A stretch of 13,854 nt of DNA from Thermoproteota archaeon (GTDB lineage Archaea; Korarchaeota; Korarchaeia; B14-G2): assembly GCA_003661385.1 (NCBI GenBank), contig QMWA01000025.1:1-13854 (forward strand), in the 5' to 3' direction. Of the stretch, positions 2,625 to 13,721 are shown piece after piece. The position numbers were made by a program, and so were the translations under genes. Positions within the stretch are counted from its first letter, which is position 1; each line of letters starts with the position of its first letter. The notes under the pieces were generated by a model, which did no database searches, was not told the DNA's origin, and saw only the letters and a list, made by a program, of their open reading frames with translations.

Positions 2625-3197
2625 CTACTTACGTAGGTCAAGTAATGCTATTTTTTCAAGCACCCCGAGCTCCAGTGCCTTTATTAGCCCCTTCCCCCTG
2701 TCAAAGACCTCTAACTTCACACTAAAGACCTTAGATAGCTTCTTGACATCACACTGCTCTGGTACAATGTCCTCTAAGATCTCCCCTCCATGTACACGTA
2801 TACACCTCCTTATACTTTCCAAGACTTTCTCTCCATCTCCATATGCTATGCATACAAACTCTCTAGAGGTAATTCCTTCCAGAATGCTCTTAACGTCTCT
2901 TATCTGCTTAACTCCAAAGTAGTATCTAAGAAACTCCATATTCGGGTCTCTAAGCTTACCCCCCCTTCTAAGCGATCTAAGACAGTGGATAAATGCTGAT
3001 AACACGTGTCTAGTAGAGAAGGCGAATTCAGCTGGAAGAACCACATATAAACTGCTGTGCTTATCAAGCTCGCTGCTTACCTCCTTAAGAACCTCATGAA
3101 GTTCTCTAGCTTCCCTATATACTATTCTAACGGCAATCAGCTCAAACTCTACTGCTTCAACATAGCTTACTAAGAACTCAGGCTTAATGACTACCAA
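2625..3197 (-). CDS. cgi121: KEOPS complex subunit Cgi121
   Basis: This 190-residue protein matches the Cgi121/TPRKB family. It has the STRHVLSAFIHCLRSLRRGG helix, the N-x-E-FLRYYFGVKQI segment (the family's 'n.eiLly.sg.rQI'), the VCIAYGD strand, and a C-terminus VLEKIALLDLRK close to the usual 'vlEkiAlleL'. Cgi121 is a KEOPS subunit that binds Bud32 and the tRNA 3' CCA end, helping Kae1 place t6A at position 37 of tRNAs that read ANN codons. The start is a TTG only 14 nt after the 3' end of tRNA-Arg(CCT). No promoter is visible between them, so co-transcription and release by tRNA 3' processing is likely (inference). It converges with the KITE gene with a 3-nt gap. Some neighbouring residues could be lost if a later start is used, but no better start is seen. 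Confidence 0.87.
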   Translation of the reverse strand: MVVIKPEFLVSYVEAVEFELIAVRIVYREARELHEVLKEVSSELDKHSSLYVVLPAEFAFSTRHVLSAFIHCLRSLRRGGKLRDPNMEFLRYYFGVKQIRDVKSILEGITSREFVCIAYGDGEKVLESIRRCIRVHGGEILEDIVPEQCDVKKLSKVFSVKLEVFDRGKGLIKALELGVLEKIALLDLRK

Positions 3198-3211: not shown

Positions 3212-3313
3212 CGGGCCCGGAGGGACTTGAACCCTCGACCTGGGGCTCTCTCCCGTAATTAGGAGGCCCCCGCTCTAACTCTAGCTATCTGCTCCTAGCT
3301 GAGCTACGGGCCC
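3212..3313 (-). tRNA. tRNA-Arg(CCT) with two introns
   Basis: The acceptor stem is GGGCCCG/CGGGCCC with discriminator G and no encoded CCA. The T arm is GAGGG-TTCAAGT-CCCTC. The anticodon stem is GGGGC/GCCCC around loop CTCCTAA, so the anticodon is CCT. Intron 1 (3279-3292, 14 nt, position 20/20a) sits in the D loop: CTAG pairs with CTAG, flanked by bulges GAG and AGT. Removing it gives the normal D loop AGCTAGGATTA. Intron 2 (3248-3259, 12 nt, canonical 37/38) has central helix CTCC/GGAG with bulges TAA and AGA. The mature length is 76 nt. The repeated TAGCTA sequence leaves the exact cuts of intron 1 slightly uncertain. Confidence 0.93.
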
Positions 3314-3336
3314 ACCTGAACTCCATGCTACTATAG

Positions 3337-3352
3337 CCTTTTAACTTTTACC
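3337..3352 (-). promoter_or_regulatory. BRE/TATA promoter of tRNA-Arg(CCT)
   Basis: Read on the minus strand this is an A-rich BRE (GTAAAAG) followed by TATA-like TTAAAAGG. The centre of the TATA box lies about 27 nt upstream of the mature tRNA 5' end. That is the usual archaeal TATA-to-start distance, so the transcript probably starts at or next to the tRNA itself. Confidence 0.6.
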
Positions 3353-3364
3353 TTTGCTGACAGT

Positions 3365-4396
3365 TTAGCTCAGTTTCTCTTCCCTGAGGTCTATCATGTC
3401 CTCAACACTAGGTCCTGTTGAGATCATGGTTACTGGGGTCTTTAGTTCGTCTTCAACCTTTTCGATGAACTCTCTTGCTCTTTTGGGGAGAGCATCGTAG
3501 CTTTTTATCCCATAAGCTGCTGGATACATCCTATCTATGTTAGTTATTGCTATTTGTGTGGCTGAATTCAGCATGATAGCTCTCTTAGCAAGCTTAAAGT
3601 TGAATGGAGCTGCTCTCCTTACCCTTCCAGTGACAGTAGCTATCTCAAGTATCCCCATCTCTTTTGCTTTTTCAGCTGGGAGTTCTCCCTCTAAAGGCCC
3701 CCCTCCTACCCTGGTTGTGTAGGCTTTAAACACTAGTATGATGTCCGTGACTTTCCTAGGTCCTATCCCAATATCTGAGCATACAGCTGATGCTGTCGTG
3801 TCCTTAGATGTGCAATAAGGGTAGTGGTCTGTGTGGTATAGTGAGAGAAATGTCCCCTGGGTCCCCTCTAAGAGGATGCTATACCCACTGTCTAAGGCTT
3901 CATTCAGCACTAATGCAACATCCGTTATGTACTCCCTTAGTGTATCCACTTCACGTGCTATCTTGAGCACTCTAAGCGCTCTCTCAGCATTAGCTGGCCC
4001 GCACCCTGTCCCTGTTGTCCCAACCCTCCCGCTGAGATGCTTGCTTTTCCTGTCTTCCTCGATGTGCTTTTCCTCGATAACACCACAGTTTCCGTCTATC
4101 CATATCCTACCTCTGCAGCCAGTTTCCTTAACCTCTCTCAGGAACACCTTAGGATCTATTAGCACTCCAGCTCCAATGTACAGCCTAGTGTCCTTGCTGA
4201 CGAATGCTGATGGAAGCTGCCTAAGCTTGTACGTCCTCCCCTCAAACACAACAGTGTGCCCTGCATTTGGCCCCACTCCGCCTCTGGCCGCTGCATAAGG
4301 CTTATCTCTCCATGCTAGGTAAGATACAACCTTTCCCTTCCCTTCATCCCCATAGAAGCCTCCTACCACTATAGTACATGGCAAGCTATCCCCCAC
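3365..4396 (-). CDS. purA: Adenylosuccinate synthetase (short archaeal form)
   Basis: PurA joins IMP and aspartate using GTP to make adenylosuccinate, the first committed step from IMP to AMP, in the cytoplasm. Signatures present are the P-loop GGFYGDEGKGK near the N-terminus, GVGPNAGHTVV (catalytic His), TGTGCGPANAERALR, LLEGTQGTFLSLYH, CTSKDTTASA and VGGGPLEGELP. At 343 residues it matches thermophilic archaeal PurA, which is about 90-100 residues shorter than bacterial forms. The annotated GTG start gives five residues before CTIVVGGF. A TTG at 4384, with GGGGGAT just upstream, would give MPCTIVVGGF and is an equally reasonable start. The gene is divergent from the C25 peptidase gene, with 50 nt between start codons. 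Confidence 0.95.
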   Translation of the reverse strand: MGDSLPCTIVVGGFYGDEGKGKVVSYLAWRDKPYAAARGGVGPNAGHTVVFEGRTYKLRQLPSAFVSKDTRLYIGAGVLIDPKVFLREVKETGCRGRIWIDGNCGVIEEKHIEEDRKSKHLSGRVGTTGTGCGPANAERALRVLKIAREVDTLREYITDVALVLNEALDSGYSILLEGTQGTFLSLYHTDHYPYCTSKDTTASAVCSDIGIGPRKVTDIILVFKAYTTRVGGGPLEGELPAEKAKEMGILEIATVTGRVRRAAPFNFKLAKRAIMLNSATQIAITNIDRMYPAAYGIKSYDALPKRAREFIEKVEDELKTPVTMISTGPSVEDMIDLREEKLS

Positions 4397-4406
4397 CTAC
4401 CACACT

Positions 4407-4434
4407 AGCTAAAGCTCATAAGACTGCTTTAGCT
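4407..4434. repeat. 9-bp inverted repeat in the purA / peptidase divergent promoter
   Basis: AGCTAAAGC (4407-4415) and GCTTTAGCT (4426-4434) form a perfect inverted repeat around a 10-nt spacer that contains CATAAG. It lies in the 50-nt gap between two divergent starts, about 20-30 nt from each, where TATA boxes or an operator would be expected. It may be back-to-back core promoter elements or a dimeric regulator site. The function is inferred from position only. Confidence 0.4.
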
Positions 4435-4446
4435 TCTTAACCTAAT

Positions 4447-6384
4447 ATGAGGCTAGCTCGAGTTCTTGATAAGTGCTGGGTAGCTTGTGTCCTCACCTTA
4501 TTATCTTCATCTGCTAACTATGCTCTATTAGCGGCTTTTCAGCCTACAGCAGCTGATATACGTGATGTCCCAACTCTAAGGCAGTCTATAGTCTTAGTCG
4601 ACTCGAAGCTAACTTACCTGACTGCAGCTCCTCTGGCAGCATGCTTCTCATCCATAGTAGTATATGTCAGCTCTGAATCCAGCTTGTCTAGGATTAATCG
4701 CTTAGCTGCCTTGTCTAATAGGATTATCCTCGATGCAAGAGGGTTTAGCCCAGCTGATCTAGTCATTTTATCTGCAAGAAAAGGTTGGCTCTCTGCGGGG
4801 GCTCTCATAGTTTCTGATGCATCCGACCTAGAGGCTTGCATGGAGGCGAGCCGCTATGCTGTGCAGCGCAGGGCACCACTACTGCCTGTTTCTGCGCTTG
4901 ATTCTGTAGACAACGTCTTTGACTCCATTCTTCCCAGGGAACTGGTATTATTCGCAAGTAACCTCACCTTAATAAGGGAGCTGTCATCGAAGTACCCTTG
5001 CATAGTTGCAAAGCCCCCTCATTCGTCTGATAACATAACTTATGTAGTTACTTCCCCTCGAGATAGTGATGCAGCATTCCTCGCCTCTCAAATAGCCTCG
5101 ACACGGCTAGCTGAATACATCCCCCTTGACAAGCTCCAAGCTTTCTTGGAGTCTCATTTCTCATGCTCCCCTGTGGTCGCTGTCCTCTGCACTATGCAGG
5201 AGTTAAAGGAGAAGAACCTAGTATATGCTGTAAATGAGGCTGTGATAAGGTTAGATGACGATCCATACATAGATGTGCCTACTGGCTTCTTGGCTGCTGC
5301 TACTATAGACGACATATCGTACATGATAGCTGCCTCTCTTATCTACCCGGAGATATTCTTGAAGATCCCTAACATGTTGCTTCTCACAATATCCGATGCT
5401 GAACCAGTAGCTCTTAAGCTCATCAGGATAGCTGCTCTCGCGCACGTTAATTCAACGCTGCTGACCGAGGTGGAAGGTAATCTCACAAAGGCTGCTGCAG
5501 TAAAGTGGCTATCACAGCCTAACTCGCTCATCTACATAGGGATGCACGGCTCTCCCTACTCTCTAGCTCCAAGCCCATATGCGTCTCCATATCTGATAAG
5601 CAGCAGCGACTTGCCCCAGTTACCCCCCGCCATAGTATTCACCTTATCTTGTTCAACAGCTCGACTAGATTCTAAGACGGATTTGTCAAGATACCTACCT
5701 GCAGCATTCCTCTCTCAGGGAGCTGTCGCGTATATTGGAGCGATGAGAGTCGAGTATGTGGCTGAAGAGCAAAGTACTGCACTACCTGACCTGATCCTAT
5801 ATCTGCTACTGCATGCCGGAGCTCCCCTCGGAGAGGTTGTCAGAGTACTGAATAATTTCCATATATCAAGTATGTTGGGGCATTCTCCGCCAGAAAAGTC
5901 GGCATACACTGTCTTATTTGGTGATCCAGCTTTACATGTGCCCTGCTCCAGCTCTCACTATGTTAAGGTCACGGAGGCAAGGTTTACTGAGGGTGATGCG
6001 TGGCTGAGGCTGAGGGTTCTAACTTTCACCCCATCAGTGTATACTGTGCTCAAAGTGCCTATAGAGGAGTATAGCCCAAGGCCTAAGGTAAAGATAACGG
6101 TCAATAGAAGGGTTATAGACATGGTTTCTCCACTATTTTTAGATAAAACACCACAGGGCAACGTGCTCCACCTATATGCTACCCTAAAGGTCACACTTGT
6201 GGTCGGCGACTTTAGCCCTGGGGACATAATTGAGGTGGAGGCTTATGTTAAGCCTTCTTTACCTCCTCTAGTCAAGCTGCTTCTCATAGCCTCCACAGCT
6301 ACAGTGGTTTACCTAGTGGCTAGGCGGCAATTCAGAGCTAGACATCGATCTAGCTCCAAGCCTCACGTGGAAGCTGCTACTTGA
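4447..6384 (+). CDS. Membrane-anchored gingipain-like (C25, clan CD) cysteine peptidase
   Basis: This is a 645-residue protein with an N-terminal hydrophobic segment (VACVLTLLSSSANYALLAAF), probably a signal peptide, and a C-terminal membrane helix (LVKLLLIASTATVVYLVA) followed by a basic RRQFRARHR tail. That arrangement predicts an extracellular enzyme held by a C-terminal anchor. The catalytic core looks like peptidase family C25: LIYIGMHGSP with His367, IVFTLSCSTA with Cys402, FLSQGAVAYIGAM, and a later VLFGDPALHV strand. The His-Cys spacing of 35 residues and the 'GDPAL' ending fit C25-like proteins. The N-terminal roughly 300 residues are unassigned, and a beta-rich domain of about 130 residues lies between the peptidase and the anchor. 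No substrate can be inferred. The ATG at 4447 has no clear Shine-Dalgarno motif, so it may be read from a leaderless or short-leader mRNA. Confidence 0.75.
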   Translation: MRLARVLDKCWVACVLTLLSSSANYALLAAFQPTAADIRDVPTLRQSIVLVDSKLTYLTAAPLAACFSSIVVYVSSESSLSRINRLAALSNRIILDARGFSPADLVILSARKGWLSAGALIVSDASDLEACMEASRYAVQRRAPLLPVSALDSVDNVFDSILPRELVLFASNLTLIRELSSKYPCIVAKPPHSSDNITYVVTSPRDSDAAFLASQIASTRLAEYIPLDKLQAFLESHFSCSPVVAVLCTMQELKEKNLVYAVNEAVIRLDDDPYIDVPTGFLAAATIDDISYMIAASLIYPEIFLKIPNMLLLTISDAEPVALKLIRIAALAHVNSTLLTEVEGNLTKAAAVKWLSQPNSLIYIGMHGSPYSLAPSPYASPYLISSSDLPQLPPAIVFTLSCSTARLDSKTDLSRYLPAAFLSQGAVAYIGAMRVEYVAEEQSTALPDLILYLLLHAGAPLGEVVRVLNNFHISSMLGHSPPEKSAYTVLFGDPALHVPCSSSHYVKVTEARFTEGDAWLRLRVLTFTPSVYTVLKVPIEEYSPRPKVKITVNRRVIDMVSPLFLDKTPQGNVLHLYATLKVTLVVGDFSPGDIIEVEAYVKPSLPPLVKLLLIASTATVVYLVARRQFRARHRSSSKPHVEAAT

Positions 6385-6441
6385 CCTAAGCAGTGGGCTA
6401 CATGTTAGTGATAGCATCAGAACTCTATCTCTGATCTCGCT

Positions 6442-6454
6442 GAAAGTTTTTAAA
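6442..6454 (+). promoter_or_regulatory. BRE/TATA promoter of tRNA-Thr(GGT)
   Basis: GAAAG followed by TTTTTAAA gives a textbook archaeal BRE/TATA pair. Its centre is about 26-27 nt before the tRNA 5' base, so transcription probably starts at the mature 5' end. Confidence 0.65.
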
Positions 6455-6476
6455 TGCTTCTTCTCTTCTCCCTTGG

Positions 6477-6564
6477 GCCGCGGTAGCTCAGCCTGGTTAG
6501 AGCGCCGGCTTGGTAAGCCGGAGGTCGCGGGTTCGAATGTTTACAGAGTATCCCGCCCGCGGCT
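6477..6564 (+). tRNA. tRNA-Thr(GGT) with a T-loop intron
   Basis: The acceptor is GCCGCGG/CCGCGGC with discriminator T, as expected for archaeal tRNA-Thr, and no encoded CCA. The D arm is GCTC-AGCCTGGTTA-GAGC. The anticodon arm is CCGGC-TTGGTAA-GCCGG, giving anticodon GGT with no intron there. The T stem GCGGG/CCCGC encloses 20 nt instead of 7. Removing 13 nt (6538-6550, position 59/60) leaves TTCGAAT. The intron fold is relaxed: TTC pairs with GAG, leaving a G/A mismatch, so the exact cut may shift by a base or two. The mature length is 75 nt. Confidence 0.92.
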
Positions 6565-6633
6565 CACTACAGGAAGCTTCTTCTAGGCTCCTTCTCTACT
6601 TGAGAGTTAGGTGTAGGCCACCGTGGTTACCTG

Positions 6634-6647
6634 AAGAAATAAAAATC
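6634..6647 (+). promoter_or_regulatory. Likely promoter of tRNA-Thr(TGT)
   Basis: AAGAAATAAAAATC is the only strong A/T TATA-like block upstream of tRNA-Thr(TGT). Its centre is about 30 nt before the first GCCCCGG copy (6674) and about 38 nt before the second (6682). This bears on which copy is the transcript 5' end. Confidence 0.4.
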
Positions 6648-6681
6648 ATCACAATGCATGCTATAGCTTTAGAGCCCCGGT

Positions 6682-6780
6682 GCCCCGGTAGCTTTACGGG
6701 GTGAGCTCAGCTGGCAGAGCGGCGGATTATAGCCGAGCCTTGTAAGCCGCAGGTCGTGGGTTCAAAGCCCACCCGGGGCT
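6682..6780 (+). tRNA. tRNA-Thr(TGT) with two introns and a duplicated 5' end
   Basis: The acceptor is GCCCCGG/CCGGGGC with discriminator T. The T arm is GTGGG-TTCAAAG-CCCAC and the D arm GCTC-AGCTGGCA-GAGC. Intron 1 (6690-6703, 14 nt) lies between positions 8 and 9; CCCCG of the acceptor pairs with CGGGG of the intron, flanked by bulges GTA and TGA. Intron 2 (6726-6737, 12 nt, position 30/31) has central helix CGGC/GCCG with bulges GGA and AGC. Splicing gives anticodon stem GCGGC/GCCGC, loop CTTGTAA, anticodon TGT and a 73-nt tRNA. The first eight bases, GCCCCGGT, occur twice in tandem (6674-6681 and 6682-6689). If the gene starts at 6674, intron 1 is 22 nt and the mature RNA is identical. 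The tRNA runs directly into rpiA. Confidence 0.88.
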
Positions 6781-6815
6781 CTCAGCAGAGTAGAACTTAC
6801 ATAGAGAAGGTTACT

Positions 6816-7472
6816 GTGGCTAGATTTGCTTCCCAGCTAGTTGAGGACGGTATGACAGTTGGCATCGGAAGCGGCTCTACTGTTGCGATGTTCCTATACT
6901 TCTTATCTAAGAGGGTCATTAGAGAGAAAATTAAGATCAGATGTATCCCCGCTTCCTCTCAGATGGAGATCCTCGCAAGAAGCTACGGCATTCCAGTACT
7001 TAACGACTATTCCTCTGAGTTTGATATATCTATCGATGGCGCTGATGAAGTAGATCCTGAGCTTAACCTACTAAAGGGGATGGGTGGTGCTCTTACCAGA
7101 GAGAAGCTAATAGCTCAGAATAGTAGCAGTTATGTCGTGATATGCGACAGCAGTAAGCTTGTCCCCCGCTTGTTCTCAAACCACCCACTACCCGTGGAGG
7201 TAATCCCATTCCTATGGAAGGCTGCTGCTAGAAGACTCGCTAGAGAATGTCATGCCAGCAGCTACTCTATCAGAATGCTAGGTGAAGCTCCCTATGTGAC
7301 TGATAACGGGAATTACCTAATTGAAGTATATGGCATATCTGCTCCACCAGATACTGTGCTAGCTGCTGCGAAGCGTGTCGCTGGAGTAGTAGAGTGTGGG
7401 GTTTTTCCAAGCGAACTGGTTACTGAGGTCATAACAGCCTATGGGGCTAGAGTTACACACCTTAGTAAGTGA
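6816..7472 (+). CDS. rpiA: Ribose-5-phosphate isomerase A
   Basis: RpiA interconverts ribose-5-phosphate and ribulose-5-phosphate and supplies ribose for nucleotides. Family motifs are GIGSGSTV (phosphate loop), DISIDGADEVDPELNLLKGM (catalytic Asp), GGALTREKLIA (catalytic Lys), VICDSSKLV, LPVEVIPFLW and TDNGNYLIEV. The start is uncertain. The frame is open back to a GTG at 6756, but that codon is in the T stem of tRNA-Thr(TGT), which ends at 6780. The first usual initiator after the tRNA is the GTG at 6816 (218 aa, AAGGT just upstream). It removes an EKVT stretch that aligns with the first helix of other RpiA proteins, so a non-standard start such as ATA at 6801 is possible. It is probably co-transcribed with the tRNA and converges on tRNA-Met with a 2-nt gap. 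Confidence 0.93.
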   Translation: MARFASQLVEDGMTVGIGSGSTVAMFLYFLSKRVIREKIKIRCIPASSQMEILARSYGIPVLNDYSSEFDISIDGADEVDPELNLLKGMGGALTREKLIAQNSSSYVVICDSSKLVPRLFSNHPLPVEVIPFLWKAAARRLARECHASSYSIRMLGEAPYVTDNGNYLIEVYGISAPPDTVLAAAKRVAGVVECGVFPSELVTEVITAYGARVTHLSK

Positions 7473-7474
7473 GG

Positions 7475-7587
<113 letters not shown>

Positions 7588-7612
7588 ACCCCTAAGGCTT
7601 AGGTCAGTGGAT

Positions 7613-7627
7613 GATAAAAGCTTTGCC
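7613..7627 (-). promoter_or_regulatory. Likely promoter of tRNA-Met(CAT)
   Basis: On the minus strand GGCAAAG is followed by CTTTTATC, a BRE/TATA-like pair centred about 29 nt upstream of the tRNA 5' end. It is somewhat weaker than the other tRNA promoters here. It overlaps the intergenic space just after the DRG-like gene on the same strand. Confidence 0.45.
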
Positions 7628-7630
7628 ACT

Positions 7631-8803
7631 CTAAGTTCCTACTATCCTTATTATATCCAGGTCCTCTACTACGTACCCCTTCCCAACTTTTACAGGTCTT
7701 CTACCTAGGTCTCCTCTTCTCCAGACCAGTGCATACCTGAAGTTCTCATGTAGGCTGCTATGGACTCTGCCAGCTATCTCCAGAACTGTAGATCCCTTTT
7801 TCACGACTATAGGCCTATTAGCTGGCTGTTTCTCGTATCTTCCCCATGTATACACTCTGATTAGCTCAAGCTTTTGCATCAGGTACTCGGTTATCTCGCT
7901 TTTCACGCTATTTAGGTCTCTTCTCATATCAATGACTAACGTGTCCCTTACTACGCCTCTGATCTTTTCCAAGATGCTATCAGCTTCTTCGTGGGTCAAT
8001 GTATCCAGTTTCGTCATAATAATGATTGGAGGCTTATACTTGAGCATCATGGTGACATACTCCTCTATGGAGTTCAGATCAGCCTCCCCATGTATCGTCA
8101 CTATCTTGTTCCTGATTCCAAGTTCTGCTAAAGCTCTCTCTACATCTTTAAGAGTACACCCCCGTAGCTTTCCTCTTATCCTTATGATATTGCCATTTCT
8201 GCTTGGATTAGGCTCCACGCTAACGTATACCTTAGGCCTCTTTAGGGAGATTCCTCCCTTTCTAAGTATATCTCCTAGCTTTAGCAGCTGGCTTACTGGG
8301 TTACTTGAGGCATCTAATGTTATTGCAACTGAATCCGCATTTCTTACAAGCGCTAGTGCTCTGGATGTAAGCGTATCCTCGAGGTTTTCAATAACTGGAG
8401 GGGCCTCAACCACCTGGACACTTACACCATTCCACGTGAACACACCTGTCTCTGGCTTATTTACCGTGGTAAAGGGGCTAGGTGAGATTTTCACTTTTCT
8501 GCCTGTGAGCTTATTTAAGACGGTGCTTCTCCCACTATTCGTGAACCCGAACAACACAATCTGTACGTCTCCACTTTTCTCTACAAAGAACCCTGTACTC
8601 CTTCTTCGCTCTCTTTTAGACACCACCTCCTCTCTCAGCCTGGCAATCTTTCTTCTAACCTGCTTAAGCAGCTTTTCAGTACCTTTATGCTTTGGTACTA
8701 GTGCATAGAACTCCTGCAGCTTCCTAAGTCTCTCCTCTGGTGTTCTAGCTTTCTGCACCTCTTCCCACTTTGATAGCGCTTCAGCAGGGAGGTTTGTGGG
8801 CAT
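7631..8803 (-). CDS. DRG/Obg-like GTPase with TGS domain and altered G motifs
   Basis: This 390-residue protein has the DRG layout. A helical, basic N-terminus (about 1-70) is followed by VEKSGDVQIVLFGFTNSGRS, which parallels the DRG 'vaKsGdarValiGfPsvGKST'. A switch I SPFTTVNKPETG (about 109-120), a G4 TKLD (264-267) and a C-terminal TGS domain (about 315-389, ending VVEDLDIIRIV) follow. DRG proteins are ribosome-associated GTPases of translation. Two motifs deviate: the P-loop lysine is Arg92 (GFTNSGRST, codon AGA), and the G3 site, usually DLPG in DRG, reads VEAPPV. It may bind GTP weakly, hydrolyse it differently, or act as a non-hydrolysing factor. The ATG start is followed by an intact frame. 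Upstream A/T elements suggest its own promoter, divergent from the dnaG leader. Confidence 0.82.
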   Translation of the reverse strand: MPTNLPAEALSKWEEVQKARTPEERLRKLQEFYALVPKHKGTEKLLKQVRRKIARLREEVVSKRERRRSTGFFVEKSGDVQIVLFGFTNSGRSTVLNKLTGRKVKISPSPFTTVNKPETGVFTWNGVSVQVVEAPPVIENLEDTLTSRALALVRNADSVAITLDASSNPVSQLLKLGDILRKGGISLKRPKVYVSVEPNPSRNGNIIRIRGKLRGCTLKDVERALAELGIRNKIVTIHGEADLNSIEEYVTMMLKYKPPIIIMTKLDTLTHEEADSILEKIRGVVRDTLVIDMRRDLNSVKSEITEYLMQKLELIRVYTWGRYEKQPANRPIVVKKGSTVLEIAGRVHSSLHENFRYALVWRRGDLGRRPVKVGKGYVVEDLDIIRIVGT

Positions 8804-8895
8804 TCTAACCAGCCCAAGTTATGCTATGCTACTTTTATCACTCTTAAGCCTTATACAGGGTATATAAGATCTCATAGAAGCTCGATGGCACTTAA

Positions 8896-8908
8896 CGAAA
8901 GTTTAAGT
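8896..8908 (+). promoter_or_regulatory. Strong BRE/TATA promoter of the dnaG-leader RNA
   Basis: CGAAA followed by GTTTAAGT is a strong archaeal promoter, almost the same as the tRNA-Thr(GGT) one. Its centre is about 26 nt before 8931, so transcription should start right at the base of the long stem at 8929. Confidence 0.6.
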
Positions 8909-8928
8909 AGCCCTTTTCCAAGACACTC

Positions 8929-9042
8929 CTGGGGGATGTGGTGGGGCTGTCTGCCTTTGTTAGAGCCGGGTGATGAGAGGCAAGCGTTGGCTTATCGATG
9001 AGCCCGTTAATCAGTAGGCAGACACACACCTACCACCCCCAG
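8929..9042 (+). ncRNA. Structured RNA of unknown type (or dnaG leader), 22-bp interrupted stem
   Basis: The two ends pair in three blocks: CTGGGGG (8929-8935) with CCCCCAG (9036-9042); TGGTGGG (8939-8945) with CCTACCA (9029-9035), one G-T pair; and TGTCTGCC (8948-8955) with GGCAGACA (9017-9024). That is 22 bp, interrupted by a 3-nt bulge and one internal loop. The enclosed 61 nt hold a hairpin GGCTTA-TCGA-TGAGCC (8989-9004) and a box-C-like GTGATGA (8970-8976). No open reading frame covers it. The promoter places the 5' end at the foot of the stem, which suggests a stable RNA. However, the dnaG Shine-Dalgarno motif GAGGTG (9042-9047) abuts the 3' foot, so it could also be a regulatory leader. 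I do not recognise it as SRP, RNase P, a tRNA or a known riboswitch. Confidence 0.5.
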
Positions 9043-9055
9043 AGGTGTAGTAGAC

Positions 9056-10216
9056 TTGGCGAAGGAGTCGTACAAGTACATTCTGCACTTTGAGCTGAAT
9101 GTTAAGGGTCTAGTTGAGGATAGTGACGTCATAGGTGCAATATTCGGTCAGCTTGAGGGGCTCTTAGGCGAGCCATTTGAGCTAAGAGAACTCCAGAGGA
9201 TAGGTAAGATAGGCCGTATCAAAGCTGAGCTAAGGCAGAGGAACGGGGCTACAGAAGGCCACATCATCGTAACATCCAACATGAGTAGACCAGAAACCGC
9301 TCTACTCGCAGCTGCTTTCGAGTCAGTTGATCAAGTAGGCCCCTACCCCGCTAGGATCAGGCTTCAAAGAATAGTCGATGCGAGAGAAGAGAGAAGAAAG
9401 CAGATAGTAAGGAGAGCTATTGAGATACTCAGAAACTGGACTGCTAGCTTAACAGCCGACACTGCTGACATACTGGAGAAAATCCAGGAGGAGGGCCACT
9501 TAGCTGAGCTCTCCTACTACGGTCCTGAGAGACTGCCATGTGGTCCAGCAATAGAGTCATCTGATGACATAATTGTAGTTGAAGGCCGTGCTGATGTCAT
9601 TCAGATGCTTAAGTATGGTTGGAGGAACGTGATAGCAATTGGCGGCGCAACGACAACTATACCAAAGTCTCTAATCGAGCTAAGCAAGCGTAAGAACGTC
9701 ACAGTGTTCGTGGATGGCGACCGTGGTGGGGAACTCGTTCTGAAGAACGTTCTTTCACAGATGGATGTGGACTATGTCGCAATAGCTCCCCCTGGTAGGA
9801 GTGTAGAGGAGCTGTCTGCTAAGGAGATCAGACAAGCACTCAGAAATGCCGTTCCAGCAGATGAATACCGTCAGACAGCGCACCTAAGGGCCTCCCAGGT
9901 GCAAGCTGTCTCATCTGACATCAGCAGGAAGCTATCAGAGCTCTTTCCTCAGGTAGAAGGAAAGCTTGAAGCTCTTCTTCTGGATAAGAACTTCAACGTA
10001 GTTAGAAGGTGCAAAGTTGATGCACTGTACAAGGAGCTAACTTCTATCGAGGAGGGTGTAGAGTACATAGTGTATGATGGCTTTATCACGCAAAGAATAG
10101 TCGATGCAGCTGCGTCAAAGGGTATTAAAGTCGTAGCTGGTGTCAAGGCAGTTGATGTAGTCAAAGTCCCGACATGGATGAGAATAGTAACAAAGTCTGC
10201 TCTATCACAGGGATAG
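9056..10216 (+). CDS. dnaG: Archaeal DnaG (TOPRIM-domain primase / exosome subunit)
   Basis: This 386-residue protein has a central TOPRIM domain with the catalytic Glu in DDIIVVEGRADV (Glu176) and the acidic pair in VTVFVDGDRGG (Asp220, Asp222). An archaeal-type N-terminal domain (SYKYILHFELNVKGLVEDSD) precedes it, and there is no bacterial zinc or helicase-binding domain. Archaeal DnaG has been shown both to have primase activity and to be a stable subunit of the RNA exosome in several archaea. The start is a TTG with a strong GAGGTG Shine-Dalgarno motif 8 nt upstream. The pelA gene follows after 3 nt, so the pair is an operon. The structured RNA at 8929-9042 lies immediately before the ribosome-binding site. 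Confidence 0.95.
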   Translation: MAKESYKYILHFELNVKGLVEDSDVIGAIFGQLEGLLGEPFELRELQRIGKIGRIKAELRQRNGATEGHIIVTSNMSRPETALLAAAFESVDQVGPYPARIRLQRIVDAREERRKQIVRRAIEILRNWTASLTADTADILEKIQEEGHLAELSYYGPERLPCGPAIESSDDIIVVEGRADVIQMLKYGWRNVIAIGGATTTIPKSLIELSKRKNVTVFVDGDRGGELVLKNVLSQMDVDYVAIAPPGRSVEELSAKEIRQALRNAVPADEYRQTAHLRASQVQAVSSDISRKLSELFPQVEGKLEALLLDKNFNVVRRCKVDALYKELTSIEEGVEYIVYDGFITQRIVDAAASKGIKVVAGVKAVDVVKVPTWMRIVTKSALSQG

Positions 10217-10219
10217 ACG

Positions 10220-11272
10220 TTGAAAGTCTGTTGGCTAGATAAGAACTGGCTTGAAGTAACCCCCCAGACCATGGACGACTTATACTACTTGTCGAGGATA
10301 ATTGAGCCAGGTGACCTGGTAAAGGCCATAACTCTCAGGAAAATCAAGCATCCAAGATCCCTGAGACCCACTGCCCCTCTTATCGTGAAAATCCCTGTTA
10401 TGATAGAGGTAGAGTCTACCTCCCTAGATTCCCTCTCATCCAAGCTCAGAGTACTCGGAGTCATACGAGATTGCCCGAGTAAGTACAGTATACTAGGGCT
10501 ACATCACACCATAGAGGTAACCCTCGGTAAGAGGGTTTCGATCTATAAAGATAAGTGGCTTAGGCTCCACTTAGATCTGCTAGAAAGAGCTATCAAGCCA
10601 AAATCATCCATGCTTATTGTGCTCGTTGACCAGGAGGAGTTTGAATTATATCACATCAAAGATGAGCAATATCAGCTGATTACACGCGGATACTTGGGGG
10701 CTAACAGAAAGCTTACTGGAACGAGTGAAGCTATCTGTAGCAAGAGCCTGTATGAAGCTGCAAAGCTCATAGTAGAGAAGATAAGAGAACTTTCTCCCCA
10801 GCACATCATAGTGGCAGGCCCAGGATTCTTTAAGGAGTCCATGTTGAGTAAGATTCGAGAACTGAATCCTGCTCTCTCTCCCAAGCTGGTTGTAGCAAAG
10901 ACCTCGTCAATTGGTGTACCCGGGCTGATGGAGTGCCTAAGGTCTGAGTCACTCCAGAAAGTGCTCAGAGACATTACGATTGCAGAGGACAACAGGGTTA
11001 TCGAAAGCATACTGGAGAAACTCGCTAAGGAACCCGATATGGTAGCGTATGGCCTCAGTGATGTGGAAAAGGCAGTTTCCTATGGTGCTGCAGATCTAGT
11101 CGTGGTAAGCCCGTCTCTCATGTCAGCTCACAGGGACGCAATAGAGCAGCTTCTGGAGATATGCCAGAAAACAGGCTGTAAGTACAGGATCATACACTCA
11201 GACTCGCCGTCCAGAGAGATGTTGGAAGGTCTTGGTGGGATTGTAGCTGTACTCCGGTTCAGGATATCTTAG
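10220..11272 (+). CDS. pelA: Pelota, mRNA surveillance / ribosome rescue factor
   Basis: This 350-residue protein follows the whole Pelota/Dom34 layout. The N-terminal domain contains WLEVTPQTMDDLYYLSRIIEPGDLV (the family's 'eDlwhLYNli..GD'). Next come GLHHTIEV, the central domain with MLIVLVDQEEFELYHI, and a C-terminal eRF1-like domain with AYGLSDVEKAVSYGAADLVV. Pelota enters the ribosomal A site of stalled ribosomes together with the GTPase aEF1A and, with ABCE1, splits them; unlike eRF1 it has no GGQ motif, and none is seen here. The start is a TTG 3 nt after the dnaG stop with AGGGAT just upstream. Its operon with dnaG, an exosome partner in archaea, fits a joint role in RNA quality control (inference). 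Confidence 0.93.
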   Translation: MKVCWLDKNWLEVTPQTMDDLYYLSRIIEPGDLVKAITLRKIKHPRSLRPTAPLIVKIPVMIEVESTSLDSLSSKLRVLGVIRDCPSKYSILGLHHTIEVTLGKRVSIYKDKWLRLHLDLLERAIKPKSSMLIVLVDQEEFELYHIKDEQYQLITRGYLGANRKLTGTSEAICSKSLYEAAKLIVEKIRELSPQHIIVAGPGFFKESMLSKIRELNPALSPKLVVAKTSSIGVPGLMECLRSESLQKVLRDITIAEDNRVIESILEKLAKEPDMVAYGLSDVEKAVSYGAADLVVVSPSLMSAHRDAIEQLLEICQKTGCKYRIIHSDSPSREMLEGLGGIVAVLRFRIS

Positions 11273-11278
11273 AACTGA

Positions 11279-11569
11279 TTACAGGATCGAGAGCAATATC
11301 AGAAGGATTACTCCTCCTGTCATTAGCCTGAACCCTGTATATCTGAATACACCAGAAGCCCACAGTACTGCTCCAATAACTATGAGAGCGCCTGCTAGTA
11401 CTCGCCCCAGATCTATGAATAAAGCACTAATGTCCTGGATGAGCTGCTCCAGCCCATGGAAAAACTCTTCGATCTTGCCAGAGACCCCCTCAAAGGGCCC
11501 TTCTCCAAATCTAGTTGACGCAAGCAGCACAAGGTGTATTAGAAGTATCTCTCTCAACCCCTCTCCCAA
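11279..11569 (-). CDS. Small membrane protein, possible VirB2/TedC-like pilin subunit
   Basis: This is an intact 96-residue frame ending 6 nt from the convergent pelA stop. Visible elements are a short hydrophobic N-terminal stretch (ILLIHLVLLAS), an amphipathic helix (IEEFFHGLEQLIQDISALF), then a membrane hairpin: LAGALIVIGAVLWASGVF, a basic turn RYTGFR, and MTGGVILLILLSIL. The order helix, membrane segment, short positive turn, membrane segment with GG resembles VirB2/TrbC-like pilins, including the Ced/Ted DNA-import pilins of Thermoproteota. This is a pattern guess, not a recognised match. The start is a TTG at 11569; another TTG at 11557 follows a GAGAGGGG. No partner genes (VirB4-like ATPase or channel) are in the window, so no function is assigned. 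Confidence 0.5.
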   Translation of the reverse strand: MGEGLREILLIHLVLLASTRFGEGPFEGVSGKIEEFFHGLEQLIQDISALFIDLGRVLAGALIVIGAVLWASGVFRYTGFRLMTGGVILLILLSIL

Positions 11570-11606
11570 CTAACACTCAGCCAAATCTCCATATAACTCC
11601 CGCAGT

Positions 11607-12308
11607 TTACAGGGCGATTCTCTTTCTTCTTCTAAGAGCCACTCTTATGGCCTCAGCAAGGCTTTCTCCAACATCGAGCTTGATGTACACCCCTGTTCTC
11701 CCTATTTCCTCTCTCCTAGTGAGGACTCTAACCCTTTCTAACACAGTCTCCATGCTGATCCCAAGTTTCCTCGCGATAACCCCCTCACGTCCAACTATGG
11801 GATACTCTACATGCCCTTTCGGGGTAGGCTCAATCATCAAGAGCTTCTTATTTACACCTGGTGCTCTTCTCCCTTCAAGCAGCTCCTTTAGGCTAACAGC
11901 ACCGCCAAACCTGTAGAACTCATACTCTGTCTTACTAAGCGGCGTTACTGGGAATGACACTGAGATATTTCCATCCAAGTATAGGTATAGCTTCAGAGCT
12001 TTACCTGGGCACGCCTGTATCAGCTCAACCTCTCTAACACCAGCTATCCTGTCTATTGAATCTCTAAAAACTTCAATAAGTGAAATAGGAACCACTCTCA
12101 CGAAGAACAAATCTATATCACTTTTGTCACCCACATCACCCCTAGCGACGCTTCCATGAACACCTCCACCAACTATACCAAGCCTAGACGCCTCGCTGAG
12201 GACTTTAATAGCTAGCTTCCGCTTTCTCTCAAGGATTTTCCACTGATCAATGCTGTAGACGACTTCTCTCTCGGCTCCCTCTCTTGCTATCCTCCTTCTG
12301 CTGTGCAA
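11607..12308 (-). CDS. Minimal nucleotidyltransferase-fold protein (archaeal COG1665-like)
   Basis: This 233-residue protein has the nucleotidyltransferase motif GSVARGDVGDKSDIDLF (about residues 52-68), with metal-binding Asp64 and Asp66. The downstream features LYLYLDGNISVSFPVTPLSKTEYEFYRFGG, APGVNKKLLMIEPTPKGHVEYP and VLTRREEIGRTGVYIKL match, from memory, an archaeal family of predicted nucleotidyltransferases about this size whose substrate is unknown. It has no partner HEPN-type gene beside it, so a toxin-antitoxin role is not suggested. The start is a TTG at 12308. A TATA-like GTTATAAGT on the minus strand (around 12344) lies about 26 nt before a position just upstream of it. It is divergent from the TtuA-like gene. 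Confidence 0.8.
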   Translation of the reverse strand: MHSRRRIAREGAEREVVYSIDQWKILERKRKLAIKVLSEASRLGIVGGGVHGSVARGDVGDKSDIDLFFVRVVPISLIEVFRDSIDRIAGVREVELIQACPGKALKLYLYLDGNISVSFPVTPLSKTEYEFYRFGGAVSLKELLEGRRAPGVNKKLLMIEPTPKGHVEYPIVGREGVIARKLGISMETVLERVRVLTRREEIGRTGVYIKLDVGESLAEAIRVALRRRKRIAL

Positions 12309-12361
12309 ACACTACCCTTATCAAAACATGGAATTCGTACTTATAACTCGAAGGTGCTCTG

Positions 12362-13144
12362 ATGAAGTTTGCTATCTGCAGTGTATGTGGATTAAGGCCT
12401 CCTATTTATGTAAAGAGAAGCTCAGGTATGGCATACTGTACACTCTGCCTCAGAAATGCCGTAGAGCGCTCTATAAAAAAGACTATTAGGAGACTAGAGC
12501 TTCTGTCGCCAACTGACAGAATCATAGCTCTAGTTAGGCCATGCGTGGAAGACATATGCTTTTTGTCTCTGTTCCTAGAGATAGAAAGCGAGTTTAGAAT
12601 GGTAAAGGTTAAGCCCCTACTAGCAGTACCCAGCTCCCCCGACTATGATCTGCTCTACTCTACAGCAAACAGCATATGCAAGGCTCATAAGATAGAGCTT
12701 CACAGAGTAAAAATCCCCTCCAGCAGATCATGTTTATCCTGCACCAGTAATGCCATGAACATGGCATTAAAGATAGCTAAGCGAGCTAACTACAACAAAA
12801 TAGTTATGCCAGTAACGCTAGACGAGTACTGCAGCCTAGCTCTAGCCTACCCAGTCATATCTCAGCGTGATATGCGACCACTGCGGGGTCTCCTTCTATC
12901 AGCTTTGCCTCAAAGCTCTAACCGTCATCTAGCGCTACCTGCCATTGAAGTGCTGTCAGCAGAGCTTATAGCAGCAGTCCAGATACCAGAGACCCCACAA
13001 GCCTGCTCTATGAAATCTAGCAGCTGGATAGGCAAGCTGAGAAGGCTGCTACTAGACCTAGAAGGCCAGAGAGCCGGCTCACTCATGGGTCTGCTGAGAA
13101 CTCTCCAGAAAATAGGCAGCTTACTCTTTACGGAAGCTATATAA
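12362..13144 (+). CDS. TtuA/Ncs6-like tRNA thiolase homologue lacking the PP-loop
   Basis: The 260-residue protein has the plan of TtuA/Ncs6 (CTU1) tRNA 2-thiouridine enzymes. An N-terminal zinc finger CSVCG...YCTLC (Cys6, 9, 26, 29) is followed by the helix SIKKTIRRLELLSPTDRIIAL. SCLSC (Cys124, Cys127) and Cys215 have nearly the same spacing as the three cysteines that bind the catalytic [4Fe-4S] cluster in TtuA, and a C-terminal helix pattern KLRRLLLDLE follows. The ATP-binding PP-loop, normally SGGKDS directly after the 'drvavalS' strand, reads RPCVEDI (residues 59-65), and the usual HN.DD-type segment reads MPVTLDEYC. The second zinc finger at the C-terminus of TtuA is absent. It is probably a non-ATP-dependent or structural paralogue. 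The frame is intact and the ATG has an AAGGTG Shine-Dalgarno motif 5 nt upstream. Confidence 0.72.
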   Translation: MKFAICSVCGLRPPIYVKRSSGMAYCTLCLRNAVERSIKKTIRRLELLSPTDRIIALVRPCVEDICFLSLFLEIESEFRMVKVKPLLAVPSSPDYDLLYSTANSICKAHKIELHRVKIPSSRSCLSCTSNAMNMALKIAKRANYNKIVMPVTLDEYCSLALAYPVISQRDMRPLRGLLLSALPQSSNRHLALPAIEVLSAELIAAVQIPETPQACSMKSSSWIGKLRRLLLDLEGQRAGSLMGLLRTLQKIGSLLFTEAI

Positions 13145-13145
13145 G
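13131..13145 (+). promoter_or_regulatory. TATA promoter of the SRP RNA, overlapping the previous stop codon
   Basis: CGGAAGC followed by TATATAAG (13138-13145) is centred about 26 nt before 13167-13168, close to where the SRP RNA closing helix begins. The TATA box includes the TAA stop codon of the TtuA-like gene. Confidence 0.65.
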
Positions 13146-13165
13146 CTACCCTAGCTTGTGTTAGT

Positions 13166-13488
13166 GGGCAGCGGTGGGTAGGGCCGGGGGTGTAGTCGAC
13201 CCCTGTAACCAGAAGACTAAGCTGGGGCCAGATGAACCCGAGGGGCGGTGAAAGCTCCTCCCAGCTATGCGCGTGAGGAGGTGATGAAGCTACCACCCGA
13301 GGGGCCTATGGAGGAGTAGGAGCTCCTGGAGAGGAGCCCCCCTACTCCTTACCGCCGAACCGGAGGAGGCTCGGAAGAGAGCACTCCTAAGGCGGACATC
13401 AGGCGTTCTCGGGCAAGGGGCTGAATCGCCCTCACGCTGCCTCTGGCTGGAAGGAGCTTCATCCACCCAAGGGGGCCACCGCTGCCCC
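13166..13488 (+). ncRNA. ffs: Signal recognition particle RNA (archaeal 7S)
   Basis: Helix 1 of the archaeal form closes the molecule: GGGCAGCGGTGG (13166-13177) pairs perfectly with CCACCGCTGCCC (13476-13487). The Alu part has the TGTAGTC...CTGTAACC motifs (about 13190-13210), with the loop sequences that pair with each other in SRP RNA. The S domain has the helix 8 core CTCGGAAGAGAGCACTCC (about 13369-13386) and GGACATCAGGC further on, bound by SRP54. The length of about 322 nt fits the archaeal range. It scaffolds SRP19 and SRP54 for co-translational targeting of membrane and exported proteins. The exact ends are taken from the closing helix and promoter distance, so either may be off by a few bases. 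Confidence 0.93.
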
Positions 13489-13517
13489 GCTTCTGCTCTA
13501 GTAAGCCACACTAGTAG

Positions 13518-13602
13518 TGGGCCGGGAGGGACTCGAACCCTCGACCTCCGCCTCGTGAGGGCGGCTTTATGCTATCGAGTCATACCCCTAGACCACCGGC
13601 CC
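13518..13602 (-). tRNA. tRNA-Val(CAC) with one intron at 25/26
   Basis: The acceptor is GGGCCGG/CCGGCCC with discriminator A. The T arm is GAGGG-TTCGAGT-CCCTC and the D arm GTC-TAGGGGTAT-GAC. The anticodon arm is CCGCC-CTCACGA-GGCGG, anticodon CAC. A 13-nt intron (13566-13578) sits between the D stem and base 26. TATG pairs with CATA, flanked by bulges ACT and AAG, and cutting each bulge after its second base restores a 72-nt tRNA exactly. It lies 8 nt downstream of tRNA-Ser(GCT) on the same strand and has no separate promoter, so the two are probably one transcript. Confidence 0.93.
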
Positions 13603-13610
13603 CCAATGAG

Positions 13611-13721
13611 CGCCGGGGGTGGGATTTGAACCCACGCGGCCACAAGGGCCACAGGCTTAGCAGGCTTAGGCTCCTCTGCCTCCTACCAGGCTCTCCGGCC
13701 AAGCCTCTAGAGCACCCCGGC
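13611..13721 (-). tRNA. tRNA-Ser(GCT) with two introns, one only 10 nt
   Basis: The acceptor is GCCGGGG/CCCCGGC with discriminator G, as in archaeal tRNA-Ser. The T arm is GTGGG-TTCAAAT-CCCAC and the long variable arm is GGCC-CTTGT-GGCC. Intron 1 (13689-13706, 18 nt, D loop 15/16) has central helix CTCT/AGAG with bulges AGA and CCT; removing it gives D arm CTC-TAGTGGTAG-GAG. Intron 2 (13666-13675, AGGAGCCTAA, 10 nt, position 29/30) has central helix AGGC/GCCT with bulges AGA and AAG and a 3-nt loop. The spliced anticodon arm is CAGGC-CTGCTAA-GCCTG, anticodon GCT. The mature length is 83 nt. Intron 1 could be placed differently by a few bases, because an alternative D arm is also possible. Confidence 0.9.

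What the first reader, a model, noticed from the sequence alone, without database searches (positions are those of the whole stretch)
3212..13721. All six tRNA genes are interrupted: ten introns, at least eight non-canonical
By folding I find introns at 20/20a and 37/38 (Arg), 59/60 (Thr-GGT), 8/9 and 30/31 (Thr-TGT), the anticodon loop and 59/60 (Met), 25/26 (Val), and 15/16 and 29/30 (Ser). Lengths are 10-24 nt and nearly all form a short central helix with 3-nt bulges. Such density is known from Thermoproteales and relatives with broad-specificity splicing endonuclease, but this level is still extreme.
Basis: partly seen in the sequence, partly recalled or inferred. Interest (0 to 1): 0.7.

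Follow-up and report, generated by a model that had tools for sequence, protein, structure and literature searches.

The report
Korarchaeal tRNA genes packed with mini-introns
Almost every tRNA gene of this archaeon is cut up by tiny removable inserts, at a density close to the known record, in a lineage outside the one known for this and with a one-gene cutting enzyme, which makes it a natural test of how that enzyme came to tolerate such inserts.

Summary
All six tRNA genes in the window are interrupted by ten introns (10-24 nt), eight of them non-canonical. Removing them gives six cloverleaves without one stem mismatch (scores 52.9-54.7; best of 150 shuffles 31.8). The introns form 38 of 40 possible central-helix pairs (null 20.1 +/- 2.8). 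No second copy of these six tRNAs was found.

The genome is a Korarchaeia MAG, not Thermoproteales, and its splicing endonuclease is not heteromeric: one 367-aa gene carries a structural and a catalytic half. The catalytic half has the 'Crenarchaea-specific loop' lysine (K222-P-K) known to give broad specificity.

Genome-wide I recover 45 of 46 expected tRNA genes with 61 introns (1.36 per gene; 39 genes interrupted; 39 introns non-canonical; median 13 nt). The published record is 71 in 46; Thermoproteales average 0.84. Seven other Korarchaeia genomes have roughly 0.13-0.4 per gene.

Best reading: minimal bulge-helix-loop introns, cut by a natural alpha2-plus-loop endonuclease and joined by RtcB. 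The kind is known; the lineage and the dose are unusual. Splicing itself is inferred, not shown.

The parts
3212..3313 (-). tRNA-Arg(CCT) gene, two introns
   Evidence: spliced form without stem mismatch
3279..3292 (-). intron 14 nt, position 20/20a (D loop), non-canonical
   Evidence: central helix CTAG/CTAG 4 bp; D-loop alternatives 19/20 score nearly as well
3248..3259 (-). intron 12 nt, canonical position 37/38
   Evidence: central helix CTCC/GGAG 4 bp
6477..6564 (+). tRNA-Thr(GGT) gene, one intron
6538..6550 (+). intron 13 nt, position 59/60 (T loop), non-canonical
   Evidence: central helix 3 of 4 bp
6682..6780 (+). tRNA-Thr(TGT) gene, two introns; the 5' end may be 6674
   Evidence: tandem duplicate GCCCCGGT at 6674-6681; TATA spacing fits 6674 somewhat better
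6690..6703 (+). intron 14 nt (or 6682-6703, 22 nt, if the gene starts at 6674), position 8/9, non-canonical
   Evidence: central helix 3 of 4 bp
6726..6737 (+). intron 12 nt, position 30/31 (anticodon stem), non-canonical
   Evidence: central helix CGGC/GCCG 4 bp
7475..7587 (-). tRNA-Met(CAT), elongator, two introns
   Evidence: the initiator is a separate gene on contig C20
7524..7547 (-). intron 24 nt, anticodon loop; 38/39 as printed, 37/38 gives the same product
   Evidence: central helix TCAT/ATGG 4 bp with one G-U
7489..7502 (-). intron 14 nt, position 59/60, non-canonical
   Evidence: central helix TTCA/TGAA 4 bp
13518..13602 (-). tRNA-Val(CAC) gene, one intron; directly follows tRNA-Ser
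   Evidence: ARAGORN miscalls it Ser
13566..13578 (-). intron 13 nt, position 25/26, non-canonical
   Evidence: central helix TATG/CATA 4 bp; same position in Val-TAC and Val-GAC
13611..13721 (-). tRNA-Ser(GCT) gene, two introns, long variable arm
13691..13706 (-). intron 16 nt, position 15/16 (D loop), non-canonical
   Evidence: central helix CTCT/GGAG 4 bp with one G-U; an alternative D-loop placement scores nearly as well
13666..13675 (-). intron 10 nt, position 29/30, non-canonical
   Evidence: central helix AGGC/GCCT 4 bp

Best explanation
These are working tRNA genes of a korarchaeal archaeon whose transcripts are spliced in cis by the archaeal protein pathway. In each precursor the 3' part of the intron pairs with about 4 nt of the upstream exon, leaving 3-nt bulges at both exon-intron borders (shown by sequence). 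Most introns are so short (46 of 61 are 14 nt or less) that no inner intron helix is possible, so they are relaxed bulge-helix-loop motifs; on this geometry the smallest possible intron is about 10 nt, and the observed minimum is 10 (geometry inferred). A one-gene endonuclease, presumably a homodimer, with an N-terminal structural half and a C-terminal catalytic half (triad Y306, H314, K345), cuts both bulges; the Crenarchaea-specific-type loop with K222-P-K lets it accept relaxed motifs at any tRNA position (inferred from sequence, predicted fold and published experiments on homologues). RtcB then joins the exons (gene present; step inferred). The tolerant enzyme let introns accumulate in this lineage.
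For: Ten introns and perfect spliced cloverleaves, beyond chance. 45 tRNA genes, 61 introns, 39 non-canonical, median 13 nt. AT-rich TATA-like peak at -31 to -24 upstream of mature 5' ends. A single EndA locus with two tRNA_int_endo domains. K222 invariant and aligned with A. pernix K44, followed by P and K (PMC12397907 for K44/P45/R46). Predicted fold pLDDT 92.6; best PDB matches are the M. kandleri subunit-fusion EndA (Z 34.0) and the A. fulgidus chimera titled 'broadest substrate specificity' (Z 28.2); PMC6379350 reports that inserting the loop into A. fulgidus alpha'2 EndA confers broad specificity. RtcB gene present. EndA contig C7 also carries an interrupted tRNA-Pro. Exons of Val-TAC and Val-CAC differ at 1 of 72 sites, their introns at 3 of 13.
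Against: No RNA data: neither splicing nor enzyme assembly nor specificity was observed. The korarchaeal enzymes with the same loop lysine sit in intron-poor genomes too, so the loop alone does not explain the load. The RtcB gene shows an apparent one-base frameshift in this assembly. The MAG is 91% complete in 206 contigs, so an additional endonuclease subunit on missing sequence is not excluded.
Confidence: 0.87

Rival explanations
1. The introns are removed by a heteromeric (alpha-beta)2 endonuclease as in Thermoproteales.
For: All previously characterised genomes with this intron density are Thermoproteales with (alpha-beta)2 enzymes (PMC8450103, PMC4033280).
Against: Only one EndA locus at E <= 1, with both domains in one frame. 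The same fused gene occurs across the class.
Confidence: 0.04
2. The interrupted genes are decayed copies (pseudogenes) and intact copies do the decoding.
For: Only that nearly all genes deviate from the standard tRNA models.
Against: All six are the only genes found for their anticodons; every stem pairs after splicing; central helices far exceed chance; promoter-like elements are in place.
Confidence: 0.02
3. Contig mis-binning: the tRNA contigs come from a Thermoproteales member and the fused EndA from a korarchaeote.
For: The genome is a fragmented MAG (206 contigs).
Against: The EndA contig C7 itself carries tRNA-Pro(GGG) with introns at 29/30 and 37/38; interrupted tRNAs lie on more than 15 contigs and add up to one almost non-redundant set of 45; the set includes tRNA-Ile(TAT), a known Korarchaeum trait (PMC8450103).
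Confidence: 0.05
4. The introns persist because they are useful, for example by blocking integration of mobile elements into tRNA genes, rather than through enzyme tolerance alone.
For: Recalled proposal from the literature; intron positions fall in commonly targeted tRNA parts such as the anticodon and T loops (positions).
Against: Not tested here; no integration data.
Confidence: 0.1

Closest known systems
Multiple-intron tRNA sets of Thermoproteales (e.g. Pyrobaculum calidifontis, 71 introns in 46 genes; PMC8450103)
   Same: Short introns at many non-canonical positions, up to three per gene, bulge-helix-bulge type borders, similar density (1.54 against 1.36 per gene).
   Different: Different class (Korarchaeia) and a single fused endonuclease gene instead of separate alpha and beta genes.
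Korarchaeum cryptofilum tRNAs and its proposed alpha2 endonuclease with the specific loop (PMC4033280; PMC3218864)
   Same: Same class, same fused two-domain EndA with K-P at the loop, tRNA-Ile(TAT), shared introns such as Trp 17/18.
   Different: G002, whose length of 1,590,757 bp matches my recollection of K. cryptofilum, has 6 introns in 46 genes, 2 non-canonical; here 61 in 45. Its loop reads K-P-E, here K-P-K.
Chimeric Archaeoglobus fulgidus alpha'2 EndA with grafted crenarchaeal loop (PDB 3p1y; PMC6379350)
   Same: One-chain two-repeat enzyme plus crenarchaeal loop; predicted fold aligns over 310 residues, Z 28.2.
   Different: That one was engineered; this one is natural, with a C-half closer in sequence to crenarchaeal alpha subunits.
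ARMAN-2 epsilon2 EndA (PDB 4fz2, 9w2k; PMC12397907)
   Same: Single-gene enzyme with broad specificity through an added loop with a lysine.
   Different: Three units per chain and an unrelated loop; lower structural match, Z about 20.

Membership tests
Archaeal BHB-type (EndA-processed) tRNA introns | Bulge-helix-bulge or relaxed motif at the exon-intron borders | tested here: met
   38 of 40 central-helix pairs, null 20.1 +/- 2.8
Archaeal BHB-type (EndA-processed) tRNA introns | Removal restores a normal tRNA | tested here: met
   zero stem mismatches in all six
Archaeal BHB-type (EndA-processed) tRNA introns | Genome encodes EndA and RtcB | tested here: met
   RtcB with one apparent frameshift in the assembly
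Archaeal BHB-type (EndA-processed) tRNA introns | Precursor is cut and joined in vivo | not testable with these tools
   needs RNA sequencing
Thermoproteales multi-intron tRNA system | Many genes with two or three introns, mostly non-canonical | tested here: met
   18 of 45 genes with two or three; 39 of 61 introns non-canonical
Thermoproteales multi-intron tRNA system | Separate alpha and beta endonuclease genes | tested here: not met
   one fused gene
Thermoproteales multi-intron tRNA system | Host in Thermoproteales | tested here: not met
   nearest held genomes are Korarchaeia, including Ca. Methanodesulfokora washburnensis
Korarchaeal alpha2 endonuclease with crenarchaeal-type loop | One gene with two EndA units, triad only in the C-terminal unit | tested here: met
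   Pfam domains and alignment
Korarchaeal alpha2 endonuclease with crenarchaeal-type loop | Loop with conserved lysine at the A. pernix K44 site | tested here: met
   K222 P223 K224 aligned with K44 P45 R46 (PMC12397907)
Korarchaeal alpha2 endonuclease with crenarchaeal-type loop | Homodimer with relaxed specificity | not testable with these tools
   monomer fold only
Split or permuted tRNA genes | Halves encoded apart or in reversed order | tested here: not met
   all 45 recovered genes are contiguous and in normal order; Leu-CAG was not found

The most novel reading that the evidence does not exclude
A natural one-gene (alpha2-plus-loop) endonuclease, so far only proposed for Korarchaeota, handles a near-complete set of relaxed tRNA introns, and intron proliferation to near-record density happened in this korarchaeal lineage independently of Thermoproteales. 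As a weaker lead, the charge of the third loop residue (K-P-K or K-P-R against K-P-E, K-P-Q, K-V-P) may set how many introns a lineage carries.
Probability: 0.55. Interest if true: 0.6.

Novelty: new member of a known kind. Interest (0 to 1): 0.45.

Why it matters
A 2019 review (PMC6379350) names only the (alpha-beta)2 and epsilon2 endonucleases as efficient on relaxed intron motifs, and the korarchaeal alpha2 type with a loop is listed as hypothetical (PMC4033280). A korarchaeal genome in which 39 of 45 tRNA genes need such processing, with only the fused gene to do it, is strong circumstantial evidence that this type has broad specificity. It gives a natural counterpart to the engineered loop graft and a within-class contrast (about 0.13 to 1.36 introns per gene) for testing enzyme-intron co-evolution. 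Practically, standard gene finders miss or miscall most of these tRNAs.

Tried and rejected
Naming the organism through DnaG in genome contigs: nothing; done through EndA. My first finder was too strict for class II variable arms and for weak motifs and invented introns in Leu variable arms and beyond gene ends; corrected or discounted by hand. Split or permuted tRNAs as an explanation for missing genes: rejected, because five of the six missing genes (Phe, Tyr, iMet, Gln-CTG, Gly-TCC) turned up contiguous but interrupted. rtcB with a pre-mRNA intron: rejected, looks like a one-base frameshift. A simple rule that a basic third loop residue means many introns: only a weak trend (K-P-K genomes about 0.32 to 1.36 per gene, others about 0.13 to 0.28), confounded by kinship; kept as a lead only. 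A DNA search for relatives of the structured stretch upstream of dnaG gave only short matches of 20-29 nt; the one inspected with its surroundings looks coding.
Full report
What is there. The window is one whole contig (C25, 13,854 bp) of a 1.74-Mb MAG in 206 contigs, 91% complete. Standard tools see little: ARAGORN reports one gene and miscalls it Ser(CGA); Rfam's tRNA model passes its cut-off for two genes. I wrote a search that joins relaxed bulge-helix-bulge (BHB) intron candidates with a cloverleaf score. Two introns are at or next to the canonical 37/38 site (Arg, Met); eight are elsewhere.

Is it more than chance? 150 dinucleotide shuffles of the same regions gave at most 31.8, 100 other stretches of the window at most 27.6, and the six genes 52.9-54.7. 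Independently, with exons fixed and intron letters shuffled, the number of central-helix pairs at the splice sites fell from 38 of 40 to a mean of 20.1 (sd 2.8, maximum 29 in 2000). Individually some helices (Thr-GGT 59/60 and Thr-TGT 8/9, 3 of 4 pairs) are not significant; the set is.

Genome-wide. Rfam tRNA hits, a model built from this genome's spliced tRNAs and a T-loop pattern lead to 45 genes, each one anticodon. Against the 46-gene set seen in the presumed Korarchaeum genome only Leu-CAG is missing. They hold 61 introns: 1.36 per gene, 39 genes interrupted, 14 with two and 4 with three introns, 39 introns non-canonical (earlier steps). Uninterrupted: Pro-TGG, Arg-TCG, Asp, Gly-CCC, Ser-TGA and, as far as the contig end shows, Glu-TTC. 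Some boundaries were set by hand (Lys-CTT, Ala-CGC, Ala-GGC, Ser-GGA, Arg-CCG, Ile-GAT, Tyr, iMet, Gly-TCC), so the total may be off by a few. Lengths: median 13 nt, 46 of 61 at most 14 nt. Positions cluster at 37/38 (22), 59/60 (9), 30/31 (6), 29/30 (5).

Are the genes alive? No second copies of the six window tRNAs were found. AT content upstream of the mature 5' ends peaks at -31 to -24 (up to 0.91 over 43 genes), the place of an archaeal TATA box; exceptions such as Val-CAC follow another tRNA closely. Among Val isoacceptors, exons of the TAC and CAC genes differ at 1 of 72 sites and their introns at 3 of 13, as expected for removed sequence.

Which organism? The nearest held genomes are 'same class'. 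One of them, G017, has the contig length and EndA position of NZ_RCOS01000062.1, Ca. Methanodesulfokora washburnensis, class Ca. Korarchaeia. G002 is a single contig of 1,590,757 bp, which from memory is the Korarchaeum cryptofilum genome; I could not check that in the library. tRNA-Ile(TAT), reported for K. cryptofilum (PMC8450103), is present here. The window's genome is in its own family within the class.

Intron load of relatives. With the same method G002 has 6 introns in 46 genes, 2 of them non-canonical (Trp 17/18, Ser-CGA 18/19). Six other Korarchaeia, counted from uninterrupted hit lengths plus re-analysis of the longer hits and of a few unparsed genes by eye, have roughly 0.15-0.4 introns per gene (G012, G017, G014, G007, G006, G020). 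G026, in another class of the same phylum, has about 1.1 per gene (hand count), mostly canonical. So the load here is an outlier within Korarchaeia. Published yardsticks: P. calidifontis 71 in 46, Thermoproteales mean 0.84, archaeal mean 0.21 (PMC8450103).

The enzyme. Only one EndA locus was found: a 367-aa gene on contig C7 with two tRNA_int_endo domains in one frame. The same contig carries tRNA-Pro(GGG) with two introns, which argues against mis-binning. All Korarchaeia examined have this fused gene. The C-terminal half is closest in sequence to crenarchaeal catalytic subunits (A. pernix 3p1z, P. aerophilum 2zyz) and holds the triad Y306, H314, K345; the N-terminal half lacks it. K222-P223-K224 aligns with A. 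pernix K44-P45-R46, the Crenarchaea-specific loop residues whose mutation impairs cleavage (PMC12397907, PMC6379350). The predicted monomer (pLDDT 92.6) matches the M. kandleri subunit-fusion enzyme (Z 34.0) and the A. fulgidus chimera with the 'broadest substrate specificity' (Z 28.2). Inserting the loop into the A. fulgidus enzyme is reported to confer broad specificity (PMC6379350); the enzyme here has that combination naturally.

Mechanism. Shown: exon-intron pairing, 3-nt bulge geometry, perfect spliced tRNAs, EndA and RtcB genes. Inferred: cleavage of both bulges by an EndA homodimer, with the loop lysine stabilising relaxed motifs, and joining by RtcB. On this geometry the smallest intron is about 10 nt (1 nt of the 5' bulge, a 3-nt loop, 4 nt of helix, 2 nt of the 3' bulge), and the shortest seen are 10 nt, so this genome's introns sit close to the physical minimum (inference).

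Novelty. Non-canonical tRNA introns, their proliferation in Thermoproteales, and a korarchaeal alpha2 enzyme with the loop are all described (PMC4033280, PMC3218864). New here are the dose in Korarchaeia and the resulting support for the hypothetical enzyme type. I file it as a new member of a known kind.

Noticed in passing
window 8928-9045: Strongly structured stretch just upstream of dnaG (long hairpin, -62.4 kcal/mol for 8920-9050, z = -4.4 against shuffles) with no Rfam match at E <= 1 and no convincing DNA relative in 22 related genomes; possibly an unknown RNA or a leader element.
   Followed up: partly
window 6674-6689: Perfect tandem duplicate GCCCCGGT-GCCCCGGT at the 5' end of tRNA-Thr(TGT): either an 8-nt leader copy of the acceptor strand or part of a 22-nt 8/9 intron; the TATA spacing fits the upstream start somewhat better.
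   Followed up: partly
window 13172-13481: Archaeal SRP RNA gene (143.5 bits), next to the Ser-Val tRNA pair.
   Followed up: no
window 2625-3197 (-): Weak, sub-threshold CGI-121 (KEOPS subunit, tRNA t6A modification) match in the gene beside tRNA-Arg.
   Followed up: no
L229 (G000:C181:2538-3718): rtcB, the likely exon ligase gene, is split over two frames by what looks like a single-base frameshift; assembly error or real is unknown.
   Followed up: partly
A1 columns around K222 (EndA alignment): The third residue of the loop motif is K or R in the more intron-rich korarchaeal genomes and E, Q or P in the intron-poor ones; small sample, not corrected for kinship.
   Followed up: partly
L080, L114-L143, L208-L211 (genome G026): A genome of another class in the same phylum also has a fused EndA with K-P-K and about 1.1 tRNA introns per gene, many of them canonical.
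   Followed up: partly
L228 (G000:C20:4100-4650): The initiator tRNA-Met of this genome appears to carry three introns (37/38, 52/53, 59/60), the last with a long stem; parsed by hand only.
   Followed up: partly
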